Source: Cellulophaga sp. L1A9
Lineage (GTDB): Bacteria > Bacteroidota > Bacteroidia > Flavobacteriales > Flavobacteriaceae
Assembly (NCBI RefSeq): GCF_009797025.1
Contig: NZ_CP047027.1
Coordinates: 3,100,001-3,164,000 of the forward strand
Direction of reading: 5' to 3'
DNA length: 64,000 bases
Shown here: positions 16,763 to 45,667 of the stretch, in pieces
Numbering within the stretch: position 1 is the stretch's first letter
Layout of the letters: every line of letters begins with the position of its first letter
The notes under the pieces: model-generated
The model's database searches: none
What the model was told of the DNA's origin: nothing
Seen by the model: the letters and a program-made list of their open reading frames with translations, nothing else
Translations under genes and position numbers: made by a program

Positions 16763-17452
16763 ATGAGTGAATTAGAGAACGTATTGATGGCATATTCTAA
16801 AACTAGTATTTCTATTCTCGATAAAGAAATACCCTTTGGTAAGTATTGTACTTTAGATCTATCTAGTTCCAATGAGTCTTTAGCTAGCATAGCTATTACG
16901 GATCCAAATGAATGTCAACAGTATATTGATACGGTTCTTTCTTCAAATGATGGCATGGTTGCTTATGGCGGATATTTAGAAAAGAGAAACCTTTATGCAG
17001 ATAAGTCCAGCTTTTCTAAAGAACAACATATTGCAAGAAATATTCATTTAGGAATAGATTATTGGTCCGTTGCAGGTACTAAAGTGCTAGTTCCTCTAGA
17101 CGGTACAGTTCATAGTTTTAAGAATAATGATACTGTGGGCGATTATGGACCTACAATTATATTGAAGCATACCATTAATAAGGTAAGCTTTTATACCTTA
17201 TACGGTCACTTATCCTTAGACACTATAGCGCGTCTAGAAGTTGGTGCTGCTTTTAAAGCAGGAGATTGTATAGGTTATTTAGGAACACCAGATATTAATG
17301 TGAATTATGCACCACACCTACATTTTCAAATTATAAATTCTATAGGAGCTTATTTGGGGGATTATCCTGGAGTATGTAATGGCAAAGATTTAGAATTTTA
17401 TAGCAACAATTGTCCTAATCCTGATCTACTCTTAAAAATAGCGTCGCATTAA
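16763..17452 (+). CDS. M23-family (LytM) metallopeptidase domain protein
   Basis: This 229-residue protein has a C-terminal M23 domain (about 95-205) with the zinc-binding pattern HLGIDYW (His and Asp) and APHLHFQ (HxH), plus TLYGHLS. Active M23 enzymes cut peptidoglycan peptide bridges. No signal peptide or transmembrane helix is apparent, which is unusual for a wall hydrolase, so export could be non-classical or the substrate cytoplasmic. The 666-bp tandem array begins 3 bp after its stop codon, so any terminator of this gene would have to lie within array DNA. Confidence 0.85.
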   Translation: MSELENVLMAYSKTSISILDKEIPFGKYCTLDLSSSNESLASIAITDPNECQQYIDTVLSSNDGMVAYGGYLEKRNLYADKSSFSKEQHIARNIHLGIDYWSVAGTKVLVPLDGTVHSFKNNDTVGDYGPTIILKHTINKVSFYTLYGHLSLDTIARLEVGAAFKAGDCIGYLGTPDINVNYAPHLHFQIINSIGAYLGDYPGVCNGKDLEFYSNNCPNPDLLLKIASH

Positions 17453-17499
17453 CGCCGTTTAAATACCAATAATTACGGTAACGGAATTTGGACTTGAAA

Positions 17500-17627
17500 A
17501 CCGTCATCGGACAAAAATCTGCTTACATCTAGATAATATCCATTCACCGATAGATAAATGGTATTGGGCGAGAATCGACGAAATACACTTTAGCTTGGGA
17601 GTATCTTTACAGTGTAATACGCAAGTC
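17500..17627 (+). promoter_or_regulatory. Conserved upstream element, copy 1
   Basis: About 128 bp immediately before the start codon contain blocks shared by all five copies: ATCGGACAAAAA, TACATCTAGATAAT, CACCGATAGATAAATGGT, AATCGACGAAATACAC and TATCTTTACAGTGTAAT. The last contains a -7-like box TATCTTTA (17602-17609; consensus TAnnTTTG). No -33 TTG is suitably placed, so an activator bound to the upstream blocks is likely (inference). Confidence 0.7.
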
Positions 17628-17870
17628 ATGAAAACTATCTTAACTATTTTATTTGTTCTTTTTATCGGTCTATTTGCTCAAGCACAAGATGCTAAAGTAG
17701 AAGTGAAGGTTGCTGCACAAACAGAAAGTGTTGTTTTAGTTGCTTCAACAATAGAAGCTACTTTAAAGAGTACTGAAACTAAAGTTGCTCGTTTATATAT
17801 GGATAGAAATTACAAAGTAAAAAAAGCATTGTCTTTTTATACAAAAGCAAACAAGACTAAATTAGCGTAA
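17628..17870 (+). CDS. Small secreted protein, array copy 1
   Basis: The 80-residue precursor has a strong signal peptide (residues 1-19, hydrophobic LTILFVLFIGLFAQA), leaving a mature protein of about 61 residues. The mature part has an Ala/Val/Glu-rich N-terminal half and a basic C-terminal half with ARLYMDRNYKVKKALSFY and a lysine-rich KANKTKLA end. The ATG at 17628 is used because an upstream in-frame extension would cover the promoter. This copy differs from copies 2-4 by TLKSTE rather than TLNS. No known domain is recognised. It could be a peptide signal, an envelope-associated stress protein or a colicin-like peptide; none of these is proven. Confidence 0.88.
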   Translation: MKTILTILFVLFIGLFAQAQDAKVEVKVAAQTESVVLVASTIEATLKSTETKVARLYMDRNYKVKKALSFYTKANKTKLA

Positions 17871-18165
17871 TTCTAGTTTCGTTATTCTTACTGACTTTTT
17901 TTACAACCTGCATTAATTCATTTACCAGCTTCTTTTTTATTCCCTATAACTTCAAACTATTTCTGTGCTCTACTTTATTTTGAAGTGACGCTCCACTAGA
18001 ATTGACCCTTGTTCGATTATTCAGCCGTTACTAGAGCCATATCGTATTCAAATACATAGAAATCGCTTGTTAAACTAAGCTTATTCCCCAGTTTGGGTCG
18101 ATAATTAGGCTTTTAAACCATCGTTTAAATACCAATAATTACGGTAACGGAATTTGGACTTAAAA

Positions 18166-18293
18166 ACCGTCATCGGACAAAAATCTGCTTACATCTAGAT
18201 AATATCCATTCACCGATAGATAAATGGTATTGGGCGAGAATCGACGAAATACACTTTAGCTTGGGAGTATCTTTACAGTGTAATACGCAAGTC
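18166..18293 (+). promoter_or_regulatory. Conserved upstream element, copy 2
   Basis: This is the same element as the one at 17500-17627, offset by exactly 666 bp, and it is essentially identical over its whole length, including the TATCTTTA box at 18268-18275. Confidence 0.7.
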
Positions 18294-18536
18294 ATGAAAA
18301 CTATCTTAACTATTTTATTTGTTCTTTTTATCGGTCTATTTGCTCAAGCACAAGATGCTAAAGTAGAAGTGAAGGTTGCTGCGCAAACAGAAAGTGTTGT
18401 TTTAGTTGCTTCAACAATAGAAGCTACTTTAAATAGTACTGAAACTAAAGTTGCTCGTTTATACATGGATAGAAATTACAACGTAAAAAAAGCATTGTCT
18501 TTTTATACAAAAGCAAACAAGACTAAATTAGCGTAA
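18294..18536 (+). CDS. Small secreted protein, array copy 2
   Basis: The 80-residue precursor is almost identical to copy 1. It reads TLNSTE where copy 1 has TLKSTE, and NYNVKK where every other copy has NYKVKK. The signal peptide is unchanged. The reading frame is intact, so the copy is probably functional. Confidence 0.88.
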   Translation: MKTILTILFVLFIGLFAQAQDAKVEVKVAAQTESVVLVASTIEATLNSTETKVARLYMDRNYNVKKALSFYTKANKTKLA

Positions 18537-18831
18537 TTCTAGTTTCGTTATTCTTACTGACTTTTTTTACAACCTGCATTAATTCATTTACCAACTTCTT
18601 TTATACTCCCTTTAACTTCAAACTATTTCTGTGCTCTACTTTATTTTGAAGTGAAGCTCCACTAGAATTCACCCTTGTTCGATTATTCAGCCGTTACTAG
18701 AGCCATATCGTATTCAAATACATAGAAATCGCTTGTTAAACTAAGCTTATTCCCCAGTTTGGGTCGATAATTAGGCTTTTAAACCATCGTTTAAATACCA
18801 TTAATTACGGTAACGGAATTTGGACTTAAAA

Positions 18832-18959
18832 ACAGTTATCGGACAAAAATCTGCTTACATCTAGATAATATCCATTCACCGATAGATAAATGGTATTGGG
18901 CGAGAATCGACGAAATACACTTTAGCTTGGGAGTATCTTTACAGTGTAATACGCAAGTC
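18832..18959 (+). promoter_or_regulatory. Conserved upstream element, copy 3
   Basis: The third copy of the leader element has a small change at its 5' end: ACAGTTATCGGAC, against ACCGTCATCGGAC in copies 1 and 2. The 3' blocks and the TATCTTTA box at 18934-18941 are unchanged. Confidence 0.7.
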
Positions 18960-19202
18960 ATGAAAACTATCTTAACTATTTTATTTGTTCTTTTTATCGG
19001 TCTATTTGCTCAAGCACAAGATGCTAAAGTAGAAGTGAAGGTTGCTGCACAAACAGAAAGTGTTGTTTTAGTTGCTTCAACAATAGAAGCTACTTTAAAT
19101 AGTAATGAAACTAAAGTTGCTCGTTTATATATGGATAGAAATTACAAAGTAAAAAAAGCATTGTCTTTTTATACAAAAGCAAACAAAACTAAATTAGCGT
19201 AA
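18960..19202 (+). CDS. Small secreted protein, array copy 3
   Basis: This 80-residue copy has TLNSNETK, the same wording as the diverged fifth copy at 20444. That may be the ancestral state or a trace of gene conversion. The signal peptide and basic C-terminus match the other copies. Its following spacer differs at several positions (for example ACCTACCTTACC in place of ACCTGCATTAAT). Confidence 0.88.
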   Translation: MKTILTILFVLFIGLFAQAQDAKVEVKVAAQTESVVLVASTIEATLNSNETKVARLYMDRNYKVKKALSFYTKANKTKLA

Positions 19203-19497
19203 TTCTAGTTTTGTTATTCTTACTGACTTTTTTTACAACCTACCTTACCTCATTTACCAGCTTCTTTTATATTCCCTTTAACTTCAAATTATTTCTGTGC
19301 TCTACTTTATTTTGAAGTGACGCTCCACTAGAATTAACCCTTGTTCGATTATTAAGCGGTTACTAGAGCCATATTGTATTCAAATACATAGAAATTGCTC
19401 GTTAAACTAAGCTTATTTCCCAGTTTATGGCGATAATTAGGCTTTTAAGCTATCGTTTAAATACCAATAATTACGGTAACGGAATTTGGACTTAAAA

Positions 19498-19625
19498 ACC
19501 GTCATCGGACAAAAATCTGCTTACATCTAGATAATATCCATTCACCGATAGATAAACGGTATCGAGCGAGAATCGACGAAATACACTTTAGCTTGGGAGT
19601 ATCTTTACAGTGTAATACGCAAGTC
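19498..19625 (+). promoter_or_regulatory. Conserved upstream element, copy 4
   Basis: The fourth copy of the leader element has two or three substitutions (AAACGGTATCGAGCGAG in place of AAATGGTATTGGGCGAG). The TATCTTTA box is at 19600-19607. Confidence 0.7.
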
Positions 19626-19868
19626 ATGAAAACTATCTTAACTATTTTATTTGTTCTTTTTATCGGTCTATTTGCTCAAGCACAAGATGCTAAAGTAGAA
19701 GTGAAGGTTGCTGCACAAACAGAAAGTGTTGTTTTAGTTGCTTCAACAATAGAAGCTACTTTAAATAGTACTGAAACTAAAGTTGCTCGTTTATACATGG
19801 ATAGAAATTACAAAGTAAAAAAAGCATTGTCTTTTTACACAAAAGCAAACAAAACTAAATTAGCGTAA
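19626..19868 (+). CDS. Small secreted protein, array copy 4
   Basis: This 80-residue copy (TLNSTETK, NYKVKK) is the last member of the exact-period array. Directly after its stop the sequence leaves the array and continues, 2 nt later, into a 36-codon membrane-protein ORF. Copies 1-3 are followed by spacer instead. Confidence 0.88.
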   Translation: MKTILTILFVLFIGLFAQAQDAKVEVKVAAQTESVVLVASTIEATLNSTETKVARLYMDRNYKVKKALSFYTKANKTKLA

Positions 19869-19870
19869 TT

Positions 19871-19981
19871 ATGGAAGTATCCTTAATAGTCGTCATCGTA
19901 TTTACTCTTTTTAACATTATTAGAATGAATATACAGACTTCATCAAAAATGAAGCAAATGCTTCTTGGAAAGAAAAAATAG
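19871..19981 (+). CDS. 36-aa putative small membrane protein downstream of copy 4
   Basis: The ATG lies 2 nt after the copy 4 stop. The product has one hydrophobic segment (residues 3-17, SLIVVIVFTLFNII) and a basic tail rich in Met, Gln and Lys that ends GKKK. The ORF is too short to support by length alone. However, a similarly built ORF (hydrophobic helix plus Lys-rich tail) follows copy 5 at the same 2-nt spacing, which supports translation as the second gene of the cassette. A terminator follows 55 bp later. The function is unknown. Confidence 0.6.
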   Translation: MEVSLIVVIVFTLFNIIRMNIQTSSKMKQMLLGKKK

Positions 19982-20036
19982 CATCAGCCATTACGCATAA
20001 AATAGCTTCAAAATTTTATTTTAATTGATAGTATCC

Positions 20037-20061
20037 AGATTCCTTCAAAGGAATCTTTTTT
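20037..20061 (+). terminator. Terminator after the copy 4 cassette
   Basis: The inverted repeat AGATTCC/GGAATCT, with a 6-nt loop and a following T6 run, closes the transcription unit of copy 4 and its small membrane ORF. Confidence 0.75.
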
Positions 20062-20315
20062 GGTTTAAGGAATGTCGGTATTGGTTGCTCAAAAATTAAT
20101 CTAATTTGCATTATCAAGCACTTCTAGTTCATTATTAATCTAGCTATTGTACTATGCTTGATGTTATAAGGTAAAGACTCTTATTTGAGGTTCTCGCTAA
20201 AAGGCTTTACTGAAAAACTATTTCGGGTGTTTTTTAAATTTGATCAAGGTAATAGGGTAGGGTGGAAATACCGATAAAGTACCCATTAACACGATGACCT
20301 ATTTTTAAGTGAATT

Positions 20316-20443
20316 ACCGTTATCGGACAAAAAGTTCTTTACATCTAGATAATTTACATTCACCGATAGATAAATGGTGTTGGGCGAAAATCGACGAAAT
20401 ACACATTAGTTAGGAAGTATCTTTACAGTGTAATACCCAAGTC
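20316..20443 (+). promoter_or_regulatory. Conserved upstream element, copy 5 (diverged)
   Basis: The surrounding DNA here is unrelated to the array, yet the blocks ATCGGACAAAAA, TACATCTAGATAAT, CACCGATAGATAAATGGT, AATCGACGAAATACAC and TATCTTTACAGTGTAAT persist in the same order and spacing. The TATCTTTA box is at 20418-20425. Conservation above that of the flanks marks these as probable protein-binding or RNA-leader sites. Confidence 0.75.
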
Positions 20444-20674
20444 ATGAAAGCAATTTTAACTATTTTATTTGTTCTTTTTATCGGTTTATTCGCTCAAGCT
20501 CAAGAAGCGAAAGTAGCTACAGCAACAGAAAATGTTGTTTTGGTTGCTCCAACGGTTGAAACTACTTTAAATAGTAATGAAACAAAAATTGCTCGCTTAT
20601 ACATGGATAGAAACTATAAAGTGAAAAAGGAATTATCTTTTTATACAAAAGCAAACAAAACTAAATTAGCGTAA
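20444..20674 (+). CDS. Small secreted protein, diverged copy 5
   Basis: This 76-residue homologue of the array proteins starts MKAILTILF and has four residues fewer in the mature N-terminal half (the KVEVKV segment is missing). It keeps LNSNETKIARLYMDRNYKVKKELSFY and the KANKTKLA end. Strong retention of the C-terminal half suggests that this is the functional part. It is followed at 2 nt by a 39-codon membrane ORF. Confidence 0.88.
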   Translation: MKAILTILFVLFIGLFAQAQEAKVATATENVVLVAPTVETTLNSNETKIARLYMDRNYKVKKELSFYTKANKTKLA

Positions 20675-20676
20675 TT

Positions 20677-20796
20677 ATGAGTATATCTACAATAGTACTA
20701 GTATTTTCTTTATCTATCGTTGTTGCTTTAGTGGTAGCTACAAAAAATACGGGCAAAAAGTTGAAGCCGATAAAGGTAAGAGTGAATAAACGCTAA
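20677..20796 (+). CDS. 39-aa putative small membrane protein downstream of copy 5
   Basis: The ATG is 2 nt after the copy 5 stop. A hydrophobic helix (residues 4-21, STIVLVFSLSIVVALVVA) is followed by a basic tail (KNTGKKLKPIKVRVNKR). The general plan matches the ORF after copy 4, but the residues differ, so the selection may be on the physical character of the protein. The stop is 12 bp from the convergent kinase gene. Confidence 0.6.
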   Translation: MSISTIVLVFSLSIVVALVVATKNTGKKLKPIKVRVNKR

Positions 20797-20808: not shown

Positions 20809-22014
20809 TTATCCGATTGGTTGGAAGTTTTGACCAATTTCTTTAAATGTAATAATATAATTAGTTCCTTTTTTAGAACCATCTTTTAGTATAGAACCTT
20901 GCAGTTGTCTTGTAAGGTTGTAGATAAGTTTTAATCCTAGGGATGTTGTTGTTTGTGGTGTTATACTTTCTTCATATCCATCACCATTATCACCAATATT
21001 TAAAACATAATCCTGGTCTTTTTGGCCTTTTTTAAGCGCGATGCTTATTTCGCCTTCTCCATTGTCTTTGATACCGTATTTTAATGAATTTGTAATGGCT
21101 TCATTGATAAGTAGTCCTAATGGGATGGCAGTATCTATTCCAAGATTAATGTCAATAATATCAATAGCTACCTTTATTCTATTATCAGTTCCTTTTATAG
21201 AACGTACTAAGTAATCACTTAATTCTTCTACATATGACTTGTATTCAATTTTTGATAAGTCTTCACGCATGTATAGCATTTCATGAACCATAGCCATAGA
21301 GTTTACTCTGTTCTGACTACTCTTAATCATTTTTTTCATTTCCTCATCTTTCATGTTTCTCGCTTGTAAACTTAAAAGACTAGATACGGTTTGAAGATTA
21401 TTCTTTACGCGATGGTGTACTTCTTTAATGAGTGTTTCTTTTTCACGTACTTTTTGCTCGACCTCCATTTTAGATTTGTACAGGTTATAATGGGTTTTGA
21501 CCAATATTTTACCAAATACACCACCAAGTATATATAAGGAGAAAAGAACACTTATGAAATTAAAAAGGTCCTGGGAAGATTCCGGGACCACATTTCTAAC
21601 ATAGGGAAGATCTATAATGGACTGAAAATAAATTAAGGTAACAATAATGAATGCGCAATAGAGGTAAACTTCACCGTACCGTTTTGTAGTGACATAGCCG
21701 GCAAAAACAACTAATCCTAAAACGAAAATAAAGGCACTGTTAATACCTCCACTAAACAGTGTAATTACAATACAGCAAATTAAAGCTAAAAGTGATGTAA
21801 TATTATACATCAATGATAAATTTTTAAAAGACTTGTACGCAAAGGTGTTCGCTAAATTCAATATTGAAAATAAAAAAAACACGTACGGAATTACTTCTGT
21901 AATTTTTAGGAAGTAAATACACATGAAACCAAACACTAAGGATAGTGTGGAGGAGATGTAATTTACTCTTAGAATTAGGTTTGTTTTGGTTTTAAGGCGT
22001 TGCTGGTGAGCCAT
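20809..22014 (-). CDS. HisKA_2-type sensor histidine kinase with multi-helix membrane domain
   Basis: This 401-residue inner-membrane kinase has six or seven hydrophobic helices in residues 15-175, a linker coiled coil (180-197), and the HisKA_2 dimerisation motif EVHHRVKNNLQTVSSLL with His200-His201. A HATPase domain follows, with NEAITNSLKYG (N box) and IGDNGDGY (G box). The membrane part has no large periplasmic sensor domain, so the signal may be membrane-borne or hydrophobic. No response regulator is adjacent. In flavobacteria such kinases often pair with LytTR or CheY-like regulators (general knowledge); a link with the neighbouring array is speculative. Confidence 0.88.
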   Translation of the reverse strand: MAHQQRLKTKTNLILRVNYISSTLSLVFGFMCIYFLKITEVIPYVFFLFSILNLANTFAYKSFKNLSLMYNITSLLALICCIVITLFSGGINSAFIFVLGLVVFAGYVTTKRYGEVYLYCAFIIVTLIYFQSIIDLPYVRNVVPESSQDLFNFISVLFSLYILGGVFGKILVKTHYNLYKSKMEVEQKVREKETLIKEVHHRVKNNLQTVSSLLSLQARNMKDEEMKKMIKSSQNRVNSMAMVHEMLYMREDLSKIEYKSYVEELSDYLVRSIKGTDNRIKVAIDIIDINLGIDTAIPLGLLINEAITNSLKYGIKDNGEGEISIALKKGQKDQDYVLNIGDNGDGYEESITPQTTTSLGLKLIYNLTRQLQGSILKDGSKKGTNYIITFKEIGQNFQPIG

Positions 22015-44821: not shown

Positions 44822-45667
44822 TTATTCTTCTCTTTCGGGCCATAAGTTAGGATGTTCACCGCTATACCCTAATTTCGGAATTTCATTGATCTGTTGAATT
44901 TCTTCAAGGGTTAAGTCAAAATCAAAAATATCAATATTTTCTATGATACGTTCTTTTGTAGTGGATTTAGGGATGACAACAACGTTATGTTGTGTTACCC
45001 AGCGTAAACAAACTTTTGCCACAGTGGTATTATGGTTTTGAGCAATAGATTTCAGCGTGTTATTATTTAAAATTTCACCTCTGCCAAGAGGCGACCATGA
45101 TTGTACCGTGATATTTTTTACTTTACAAAACCAAGTTACTTCTGGTTGCCAATATCCAGGGTGAAATTCTATCTGATTAATGGCAGGTAAAACCCGTGCT
45201 GTTTTAAAAAGTGCTTCTAAATGTTCTGGCCAAAAATTACTGACCCCAATAGACTTTATCTTTCCTTCAGTTTGTAAATCTTCCATAGCGCGCCATGCTT
45301 CGGCATTTGCATGCTGCCAATTATCATAATTTTTAGCATTTGCAGGCCAATGAATCAAGTAAAGGTCTATGTATTCTAATTGTAGTTTTTTTAGAGAGAT
45401 CTCAAATTCAGACATTGTCTCTTCATAGGAGAGATTTTCTCTCCATAATTTGGTGGTCACTTTTATGTCCTCTCTAGGAACACCACTTAGTTTTATACCC
45501 TTACCAACGGCTTCTTCATTGTTATATTTTGCGGCAGTATCTAGTAAGCGATAGCCATTTTCTAATGCAAATTTTACAGCTTCAATGCCTTCTTGTTCCG
45601 TTGCTTTGTAGGTGCCAAAACCTACAATTGGTATTTTATTTCCGTCATTTAATAGTATCTCTTTCAT
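44822..45667 (-). CDS. Aldo/keto reductase
   Basis: This 281-residue NADPH-dependent oxidoreductase has the (alpha/beta)8 AKR signatures: GFGTYKATEQEG, the catalytic tetrad segments LDTAAKYNNEEAVG (Asp, Tyr), TTKLWRE (Lys) and YLIHWP (His), then GVSNFWPEHLEAL and VIPKSTTKERIIENI. Substrate unknown; it is of the small 2,5-diketogluconate reductase-like group. Single gene, 46 bp upstream of the LD-carboxypeptidase gene. Confidence 0.93.
   Translation of the reverse strand: MKEILLNDGNKIPIVGFGTYKATEQEGIEAVKFALENGYRLLDTAAKYNNEEAVGKGIKLSGVPREDIKVTTKLWRENLSYEETMSEFEISLKKLQLEYIDLYLIHWPANAKNYDNWQHANAEAWRAMEDLQTEGKIKSIGVSNFWPEHLEALFKTARVLPAINQIEFHPGYWQPEVTWFCKVKNITVQSWSPLGRGEILNNNTLKSIAQNHNTTVAKVCLRWVTQHNVVVIPKSTTKERIIENIDIFDFDLTLEEIQQINEIPKLGYSGEHPNLWPEREE

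What the first reader, a model, noticed from the sequence alone, without database searches (positions are those of the whole stretch)
17456..20674. Exact-period tandem array of secreted small-protein genes with a diverged fifth copy
Four copies of one small secreted-protein gene repeat every 666 bp with almost no sequence change. A fifth, diverged copy retains the C-terminal ARLYMDRNYKVKK segment and the KANKTKLA end. The combination of high identity, intact frames, an exported product and one older relative suggests recent dosage amplification of a peptide whose C-terminal half matters. Proteins with this plan are not recognised from a known family.
Basis: partly seen in the sequence, partly recalled or inferred. 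Interest (0 to 1): 0.85.

Follow-up and report, generated by a model that had tools for sequence, protein, structure and literature searches.

The report
Multicopy secreted-protein genes with shared operator
A marine Cellulophaga carries five copies of a gene for a small exported protein of unknown function, and each copy sits behind the same long, conserved control region, which points to a dedicated and probably two-component-driven programme in a group of marine flavobacteria.

Summary
The array is real: four ORFs exactly 666 bp apart and a diverged fifth 818 bp on. It is not a recent oddity: four Cellulophaga genomes share the layout (homogenised copies plus a diverged terminal copy), and tree shape indicates concerted evolution. 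The protein belongs to a large unnamed family, seen in the genomes sampled only in Flavobacteriaceae (71 of 397 clearly positive), with a signal peptide, an acidic variable stretch and a cationic C-terminal predicted beta-hairpin. The main finding lies upstream. About 170 bp before almost every copy are conserved across genera and hold six related half-sites that I read as three pairs with 20-21 bp periods, like LytTR response-regulator sites, followed by a -7-like box. In 18 Cellulophaga genomes, 74 of 75 strong matches to this leader lie at the start of a family gene. A 35-47 aa transmembrane microprotein follows some terminal copies. A histidine kinase adjoins the array, and one orphan LytTR regulator has an orthologue in all 71 positive genomes; that link is correlative and may be common descent. 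Best reading: a regulated, dosage-boosted cationic envelope protein. Function and regulator are untested.

The parts
17628..17870 (+). family gene copy 1, 80 aa, signal-like N-terminus
18294..18536 (+). family gene copy 2, 80 aa
18960..19202 (+). family gene copy 3, 80 aa
19626..19868 (+). family gene copy 4, 80 aa
   Evidence: AlphaFold2 C-terminal hairpin
20444..20674 (+). terminal, diverged copy 5, 76 aa
   Evidence: tree
17454..17633 (+). leader of copy 1 (model R1 match)
   Evidence: E 3.1e-26
18119..18299 (+). leader of copy 2
   Evidence: E 1.0e-26
18785..18965 (+). leader of copy 3; CG of half-sites at about 18788, 18808, 18840, 18880 and 18901 (site 4 between the third and fourth), -7-like box TATCTTT 18934-18940
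   Evidence: E 2.4e-26; positions counted by hand
19450..19631 (+). leader of copy 4
   Evidence: E 2.4e-26
20267..20449 (+). leader of copy 5
   Evidence: E 3.1e-26
19871..19981 (+). 36-aa microprotein ORF with one hydrophobic stretch, starts 2 nt after the copy 4 stop
20677..20796 (+). 39-aa microprotein ORF with one hydrophobic stretch, starts 2 nt after the copy 5 stop
16763..17452 (+). M23-type peptidase gene flanking the array
   Evidence: PF01551 E 2.6e-14; recurring neighbour by sequence look
20809..22014 (-). HisKA_2 histidine kinase with hydrophobic N-terminal region, flanking the array
   Evidence: PF07568 E 1.4e-28; recurring neighbour by sequence look; hydropathy

Best explanation
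Each copy is a self-contained expression cassette. A two-component system (candidate: the adjacent HisKA_2 kinase and an orphan LytTR response regulator at G000:C1:3984637-3985398) loads a LytTR-type activator on six half-sites, read as three pairs with 20-21 bp periods, and turns on a sigma-A promoter with a weak core. The product is exported by Sec. Its cationic C-terminal beta-hairpin acts in the periplasm or at the cell surface, most likely by binding an anionic envelope component, and the array raises dosage. The last cassette also makes a single-TM microprotein. Shown: the family, the leader and its spacing, its linkage to the family, co-distribution. Inferred: export, LytTR identity, the kinase-regulator pair, envelope binding.
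For: Leader conserved over 63 diverse copies, mean column identity 60%. A weight matrix built on site 1 alone has sites 2, 3, 4 and 6 as its commonest further matches; my pre-set target columns summed to 127 against a mean of 8.2 and a maximum of 104 in 100 permuted matrices. Same-strand half-site pairs 20-22 bp apart occur in 58 of 63 leaders against 8.1 in dinucleotide shuffles; CGTTNRTCG in 15 of 63 against 0.48. LytTR-system repeats are reported as separated mostly by 12 bp, some by 11 or 13 (PMC6193735 passages; 9-bp repeat length recalled), and AlgR sites as CCGTTCGTC or CCGTTCATC (PMC4064291 passages). In 18 Cellulophaga genomes, 74 of 75 R1 hits at E<=1.2e-8 lie at a family start, and 76 of 79 secreted family ORFs have the leader. 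All 71 family-positive genomes of 397 have the LytTR orthologue (70 at >=78% identity, one partial match at 87%), and no family-negative genome reaches 78%. C-terminal 31 aa mean charge +7.7, N part -1.8, over 66 members. Predicted hairpin strands 50-58 and 64-73, pLDDT of residue blocks 51-60 and 61-70 is 87 and 90.
Against: The co-distribution may only reflect common descent: any gene conserved in the same group of genomes could look the same, no species tree was made and no control regulator was profiled. Eleven family-negative genomes have relatives of the regulator (56-77%), seven of them also the kinase, yet no convincing leader (3 of 11 with a match, best E 0.002). The upstream regions of the kinase (7 genomes) and regulator (this genome) that I printed show no obvious leader by eye. 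The LytTR-like core is exact in a minority of leaders. Other fixed distances (40, 33, 47, 26 bp) are also enriched, as any set of fixed sites would give. TANNTTTG is exact in 4 of 63 leaders, TANNTTT in 28 of 63 (12.2 in shuffles). Mean model pLDDT is 70.5, pTM 0.30. A cytosolic paralogue shares the C-terminal motif, so an envelope target is not certain.
Confidence: 0.4

Rival explanations
1. Bacteriocin-like or fratricide system: the secreted cationic protein kills neighbours and the downstream TM microprotein gives immunity, under LytTR control as in streptococcal bacteriocin loci.
For: Cationic product with signal-like N-terminus and acidic N part; TM microprotein behind 24 of 104 copies; LytTR regulators control bacteriocin genes in S. 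mutans (PMC6193735 passages).
Against: The C-terminal part is nearly invariant in 66 members from many genera, and copies within a Cellulophaga genome are homogenised, not diversified. An ABC transporter pair lies between copies in several genomes; the one scanned is MacB/FtsX-like with no C39-type peptidase domain at E<=1e-5. Most copies lack a microprotein (80 of 104).
Confidence: 0.15
2. Peptide-pheromone circuit: the exported product, or a fragment, is sensed by the adjacent polytopic kinase and induces its own genes through the LytTR regulator.
For: Adjacent kinase with hydrophobic N-terminal region, LytTR-like repeats upstream of the peptide genes, kinase sensor region in 59 of 71 family-positive genomes.
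Against: Of the 12 family-positive genomes without a kinase match, stretches of four were printed: G103 and G169 have a HisKA_2 kinase beside SecA with a much shorter membrane part; in the stretches of G120 and G350 no kinase is seen. The C-terminus does not vary between species as a private signal would. Processing is unknown.
Confidence: 0.1
3. Non-adaptive repeat: a segment that expands locally by unequal exchange, or a repeat element carrying a small ORF (for example like long-direct-repeat type I toxin loci), with little benefit from the protein.
For: Proteins with a changed C-terminus that look like frameshifted copies exist in relatives, e.g. P0041, P0033; other genes lie between copies in many genomes.
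Against: 76 of 79 secreted ORFs in Cellulophaga keep the leader in register; protein C-terminus and leader are conserved over genera; the M23-array-kinase-SecA neighbourhood recurs. Antisense transcripts and transposon-like ends were not tested.
Confidence: 0.1
4. The leader is bound by a regulator of another family that also uses about two-turn repeats; the LytTR co-distribution is clade history.
For: Sequence match to LytTR/AlgR sites is partial; 16 LytTR matches exist in this genome and only one gene was profiled.
Against: Spacing and the CGTTNRTCG core fit the LytTR/AlgR reports.
Confidence: 0.3

Closest known systems
LytTR-controlled promoters (AgrA/AlgR/HdrR type)
   Same: Direct repeats with 20-21 bp period upstream of a promoter; some half-sites like AlgR CCGTTYRTC
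   Different: Six half-sites in two orientations over about 120 bp, nearly dedicated to one small-protein family in Flavobacteriaceae; binding not shown
Bacteroidetocins (PMC6671954, passages read)
   Same: Small cationic exported peptides of Bacteroidota; a TM protein gene nearby
   Different: Signal-like N-terminus instead of a double-glycine leader; no cysteines in the five copies; peptidase-transporter and thiol oxidoreductase not noticed beside the array, but not searched for systematically
E. coli long direct repeats (LDR, recalled)
   Same: Near-identical tandem units of about 500-700 bp, each with a small ORF
   Different: Longer product with signal-like N-terminus, leader conserved over genera; antisense RNA not tested

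Membership tests
LytTR-regulated promoter | Direct repeats separated by 11-13 bp (20-22 bp period with 9-bp repeats) | tested here: met
   58 of 63 leaders against 8.1 in shuffles; S1-S2 20 bp in 47 and 21 bp in 3 of the 50 leaders with both C's; S5-S6 21 bp in 52 and 20 bp in 11 of 63
LytTR-regulated promoter | Repeat sequence fits the LytTR/AlgR sites | tested here: inconclusive
   CGTTNRTCG in 15 of 63 leaders, 0.48 expected
LytTR-regulated promoter | LytTR protein binds it | not testable with these tools
   Needs EMSA or ChIP; 16 LytTR matches in the genome
Bacteroidetocin / class IIa-like bacteriocin | Double-glycine leader of about 15 aa | tested here: not met
   About 20-aa hydrophobic N-terminus ending AQAQ, no GG in the five window copies
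Bacteroidetocin / class IIa-like bacteriocin | Four cysteines in the mature peptide | tested here: not met
   No Cys in the five window copies
Any named Pfam / NCBIfam / PADLOC family | Match above curated cut-off | tested here: not met
   Window copies: no Pfam match above cut-off; two NCBIfam matches far below cut-off (E 0.018 and 0.056); 23 members scanned one by one give no E below 0.00099 (NCBIfam) or 0.0037 (Pfam); PADLOC none at E<=0.01
Rfam leader RNA | Match to a family, or a conserved fold | tested here: not met
   0 matches at E<=1 in 6 kb of the window and in six loci; RNAalifold 0 pairs on A2
Peptide-pheromone two-component circuit | Product induces its own promoter through the kinase | not testable with these tools
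   Needs a reporter assay
Type I toxin-antitoxin (LDR-like) | Antisense RNA from the repeat | not tested
   No expression data searched

The most novel reading that the evidence does not exclude
A Gram-negative peptide circuit of the agr/com logic: multicopy Sec-exported cationic hairpin proteins, an adjacent membrane kinase, an orphan LytTR regulator and a six-half-site operator form an autoinducing module shared by a large group of Flavobacteriaceae genera, possibly with interspecies signalling because the C-terminus is nearly invariant.
Probability: 0.08. Interest if true: 0.85.

Novelty: new variant of a known kind. Interest (0 to 1): 0.55.

Why it matters
A family with 682 database matches and no curated name, multicopy in many of the 71 positive genomes and kept alike within Cellulophaga genomes, stands behind a long operator conserved across genera. 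That combination suggests real use. The leader makes it testable: it predicts one kind of regulator and seven target promoters in this genome, so an EMSA, a reporter and a clean array deletion could give a function to a family that annotation now calls hypothetical.

Tried and rejected
Structured-RNA leader: rejected. Rfam gave 0 hits and RNAalifold 0 pairs. A palindrome next to the ATG is real (arms >=6 bp in 31 of 63 leaders; mean 6.3 against 4.4 in base shuffles), but it overlaps the presumed -7 box, so I leave it undecided between DNA and RNA.

Wider regulon from a simple pattern: CGRTNAA-N13-CGRTNA gave 13 hits in this genome against 8 for the reversed control, so it is uninformative. The weaker R1 hits inspected in this genome (E 0.02-0.9) gave no coherent targets. 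Seven of 83 R1 rows in Cellulophaga are not at a family start; one runs off a contig end, and the other six are weak (E 1e-4 to 6e-3), fetched only in part and not analysed.

Autoregulation of kinase or regulator: no obvious leader by eye. An R1 scan of seven loci gave one weak match, on the minus strand about 70 bp before the kinase in L224 (12.7 bits, E 0.0042); I do not lean on it.

Papers: seven searches showed nothing on this family or leader in the held library; the sequence-word hits are chance. PMC7440613 was looked at in passages only, nothing relevant. PDB sequence search: best E 0.5, ribosomal L24, not used. Structure search of the model was not run because the model is small and of low pTM.

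Rows dropped before counts: one search uses the 79 full-length secreted family rows; the cytosolic group, partial fragments and two weak rows were left out. 'Family-positive' means best E <= 5.6e-10 (71 of 113 genomes at E<=0.001). The other 42 have best E from 7e-6 to 1e-3 and were not examined; weak matches listed mostly cover only the N-terminal part. Fisher values ignore phylogeny and are not quoted. In the tree, G002 repeats C. baltica and G017 repeats C. tyrosinoxydans (23 rows, 18 different).
Full report
WHAT IS THERE. The window is part of a 5.07-Mb single-contig genome. I call it Cellulophaga because the 17 other genomes of its genus include ones that match C. baltica, C. tyrosinoxydans and C. 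algicola records. ORFs at 17628, 18294, 18960 and 19626 repeat every 666 bp; a diverged copy starts at 20444. Two further secreted-type paralogues lie at 1880639(-) and 1142291(+), and a paralogue without signal peptide, sharing only the C-terminal motif, at 2288888.

THE FAMILY. A profile of 23 members matches 18 of 18 Cellulophaga genomes and 113 of 397 sampled Flavobacteriaceae genomes at E<=0.001, of which 71 at E<=5.6e-10. Among 296 genomes drawn from the phylum, 22 match; those outside Flavobacteriaceae are weak (E>=1.9e-5). A database search with 66 members finds 682 proteins; among the 120 listed, names are 'hypothetical' or incidental labels, from Maribacter, Costertonia, Poritiphilus, Muriicola, Saonia, Spongiimicrobium, Cellulophaga and unnamed Flavobacteriaceae. 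No curated family covers it. The plan is: signal-like N-terminus (read by eye; no predictor was run), variable stretch (mean charge -1.8), C-terminal 31 residues (mean charge +7.7). AlphaFold2 gives a C-terminal two-stranded hairpin, strands 50-58 and 64-73, with pLDDT 87 and 90 for residues 51-60 and 61-70, and a low-confidence middle; overall pLDDT 70.5, pTM 0.30.

AGE OF THE ARRAY. In a tree of leader+CDS units (23 rows, 18 different), this genome's copies 1-4 group together (89/89), the three upstream copies of G001 group together (100/99), and the terminal copies form supported subgroups (G000+G001 98/98; C. baltica+G010 99/96). The layout is therefore likely older than these species, and the copies are homogenised. 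Copies in other genera are also tandem or close together (725-bp period in G073), often with other genes between them. The neighbourhood MsrA, M23 peptidase, copies, HisKA_2 kinase, SecA recurs in many loci printed, not in every one (in the window the domains are confirmed, elsewhere names are by sequence look).

THE LEADER. The 180 bp upstream of 63 diverse copies align with 60% mean column identity. CG positions recur at fixed distances: site 1 to 2 is 20 bp in 47 and 21 bp in 3 of 50 leaders with both; site 5 to 6 is 21 bp in 52 and 20 bp in 11 of 63; site 3 to 4 is about 21 bp by column arithmetic. A matrix from site 1 alone finds, as its commonest further matches, site 6 (48 of 63), 3 (46) and 4 (39) on the other strand and site 2 (36) on the same strand; site 5 is weakest (12, other strand). 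My pre-set target columns, which had sites 5 and 6 on the wrong strand, still summed to 127 against a mean of 8.2 and a maximum of 104 in 100 permuted matrices. I read this as three pairs with 20-21 bp periods. Half-site pairs 20-22 bp apart occur in 58 of 63 leaders (8.1 in shuffles), two or more in 36; distances 20 and 21 top the spectrum, with 40, 33, 47 and 26 also enriched; CGTTNRTCG is in 15 of 63 (0.48). These leaders are related, so the shuffles overstate significance, but conserved phasing is plain. TANNTTT, where present (28 of 63; 12.2 in shuffles), starts mostly 26-30 nt before the ATG; the flavobacterial sigma-A -7 box is TAnnTTTG (PMC9723704 passages).

SPECIFICITY. In this genome R1 has seven strong hits, all at the start of a secreted-type family gene and none near the cytosolic paralogue; the next is E 0.0068, on the reverse strand inside the array. 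In 18 Cellulophaga genomes 74 of 75 hits at E<=1.2e-8 are at family starts, the exception running off a contig end, and 76 of 79 secreted ORFs have the leader. R1 was trained on such leaders, so sensitivity is partly circular; specificity is not. In three other genera a weaker leader match (E 6.3e-8, 1.2e-6, 1.6e-4) precedes a different microprotein of about 30 aa, so the leader is nearly, not wholly, dedicated to the family.

PARTNERS. A 35-47 aa ORF with one hydrophobic stretch and a basic C-terminus follows 24 of 104 distinct copies with enough downstream sequence. In 18 multi-copy loci that have it, it follows a copy at an end of the stretch held (the last two copies in three Cellulophaga loci); 12 multi-copy loci show none. 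The search profile was built from 18 of these ORFs, so the count is not independent. The kinase sensor region matches 66 of 397 genomes, 59 of them family-positive. Of 16 LytTR matches I chose a gene with no kinase beside it whose receiver looked like a HisKA_2 partner (recalled lead); Pfam confirms receiver and LytTR domains. Its orthologue is in all 71 family-positive genomes, at >=78% identity in 70 and as a partial 87% match in one; 11 family-negative genomes have 56-77% relatives, seven of them with the kinase. The leader was not convincingly found in those 11. This fits a cognate pair, but also simple common descent; no second regulator was profiled and no species tree made.

HOW IT MOST LIKELY WORKS. 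Kinase to LytTR regulator to six half-sites to activator-dependent promoter to exported cationic hairpin protein, in several copies for dosage. The first arrows, export and the envelope target are inference. MsrA and the M23 gene next door suggest an envelope or oxidative setting, no more.

VERDICT. The interesting part is a nearly dedicated, strongly conserved operator for an unnamed multicopy secreted family, with a testable regulator.

Noticed in passing
L154:3946-4107 and L176-L187: A 50-73 aa protein without signal peptide but with the same C-terminal motif lies between metG and a DUF1501 gene in this genome (Pfam) and between look-alike genes in 12 of 12 other Cellulophaga genomes fetched for it.
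   Followed up: partly
L149:4691-4870, L150:4702-4871, L151:4624-4802 (minus strand): A similar leader precedes a different TM microprotein of about 30 aa (MKEKTTLNDYLVYIFCAFC...), next to a membrane gene with a weak GldL_N match below cut-off, in three other genera.
   Followed up: partly
L153:2906-3097: Cluster of CGATNAAA repeats with about 20-bp period in an intergenic region of genome G034, which had no family match.
   Followed up: no
P0041, P0033, P0035: Proteins from C. algicola, C. baltica 4 and Cellulophaga sp. Asnod2-G02 whose C-terminal segment is changed as by a frameshift: single copies seem to decay.
   Followed up: no
G000:C1:19050, 1071375, 2392990, 3059115: An identical 26-bp string CGATAAAGCTTCGGCTGCGTCGATAA occurs four times in the genome, perhaps inside a repeated gene.
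   Followed up: no
window 45410-45447: Short tandem repeat, 20-bp unit, 1.9 copies.
   Followed up: no
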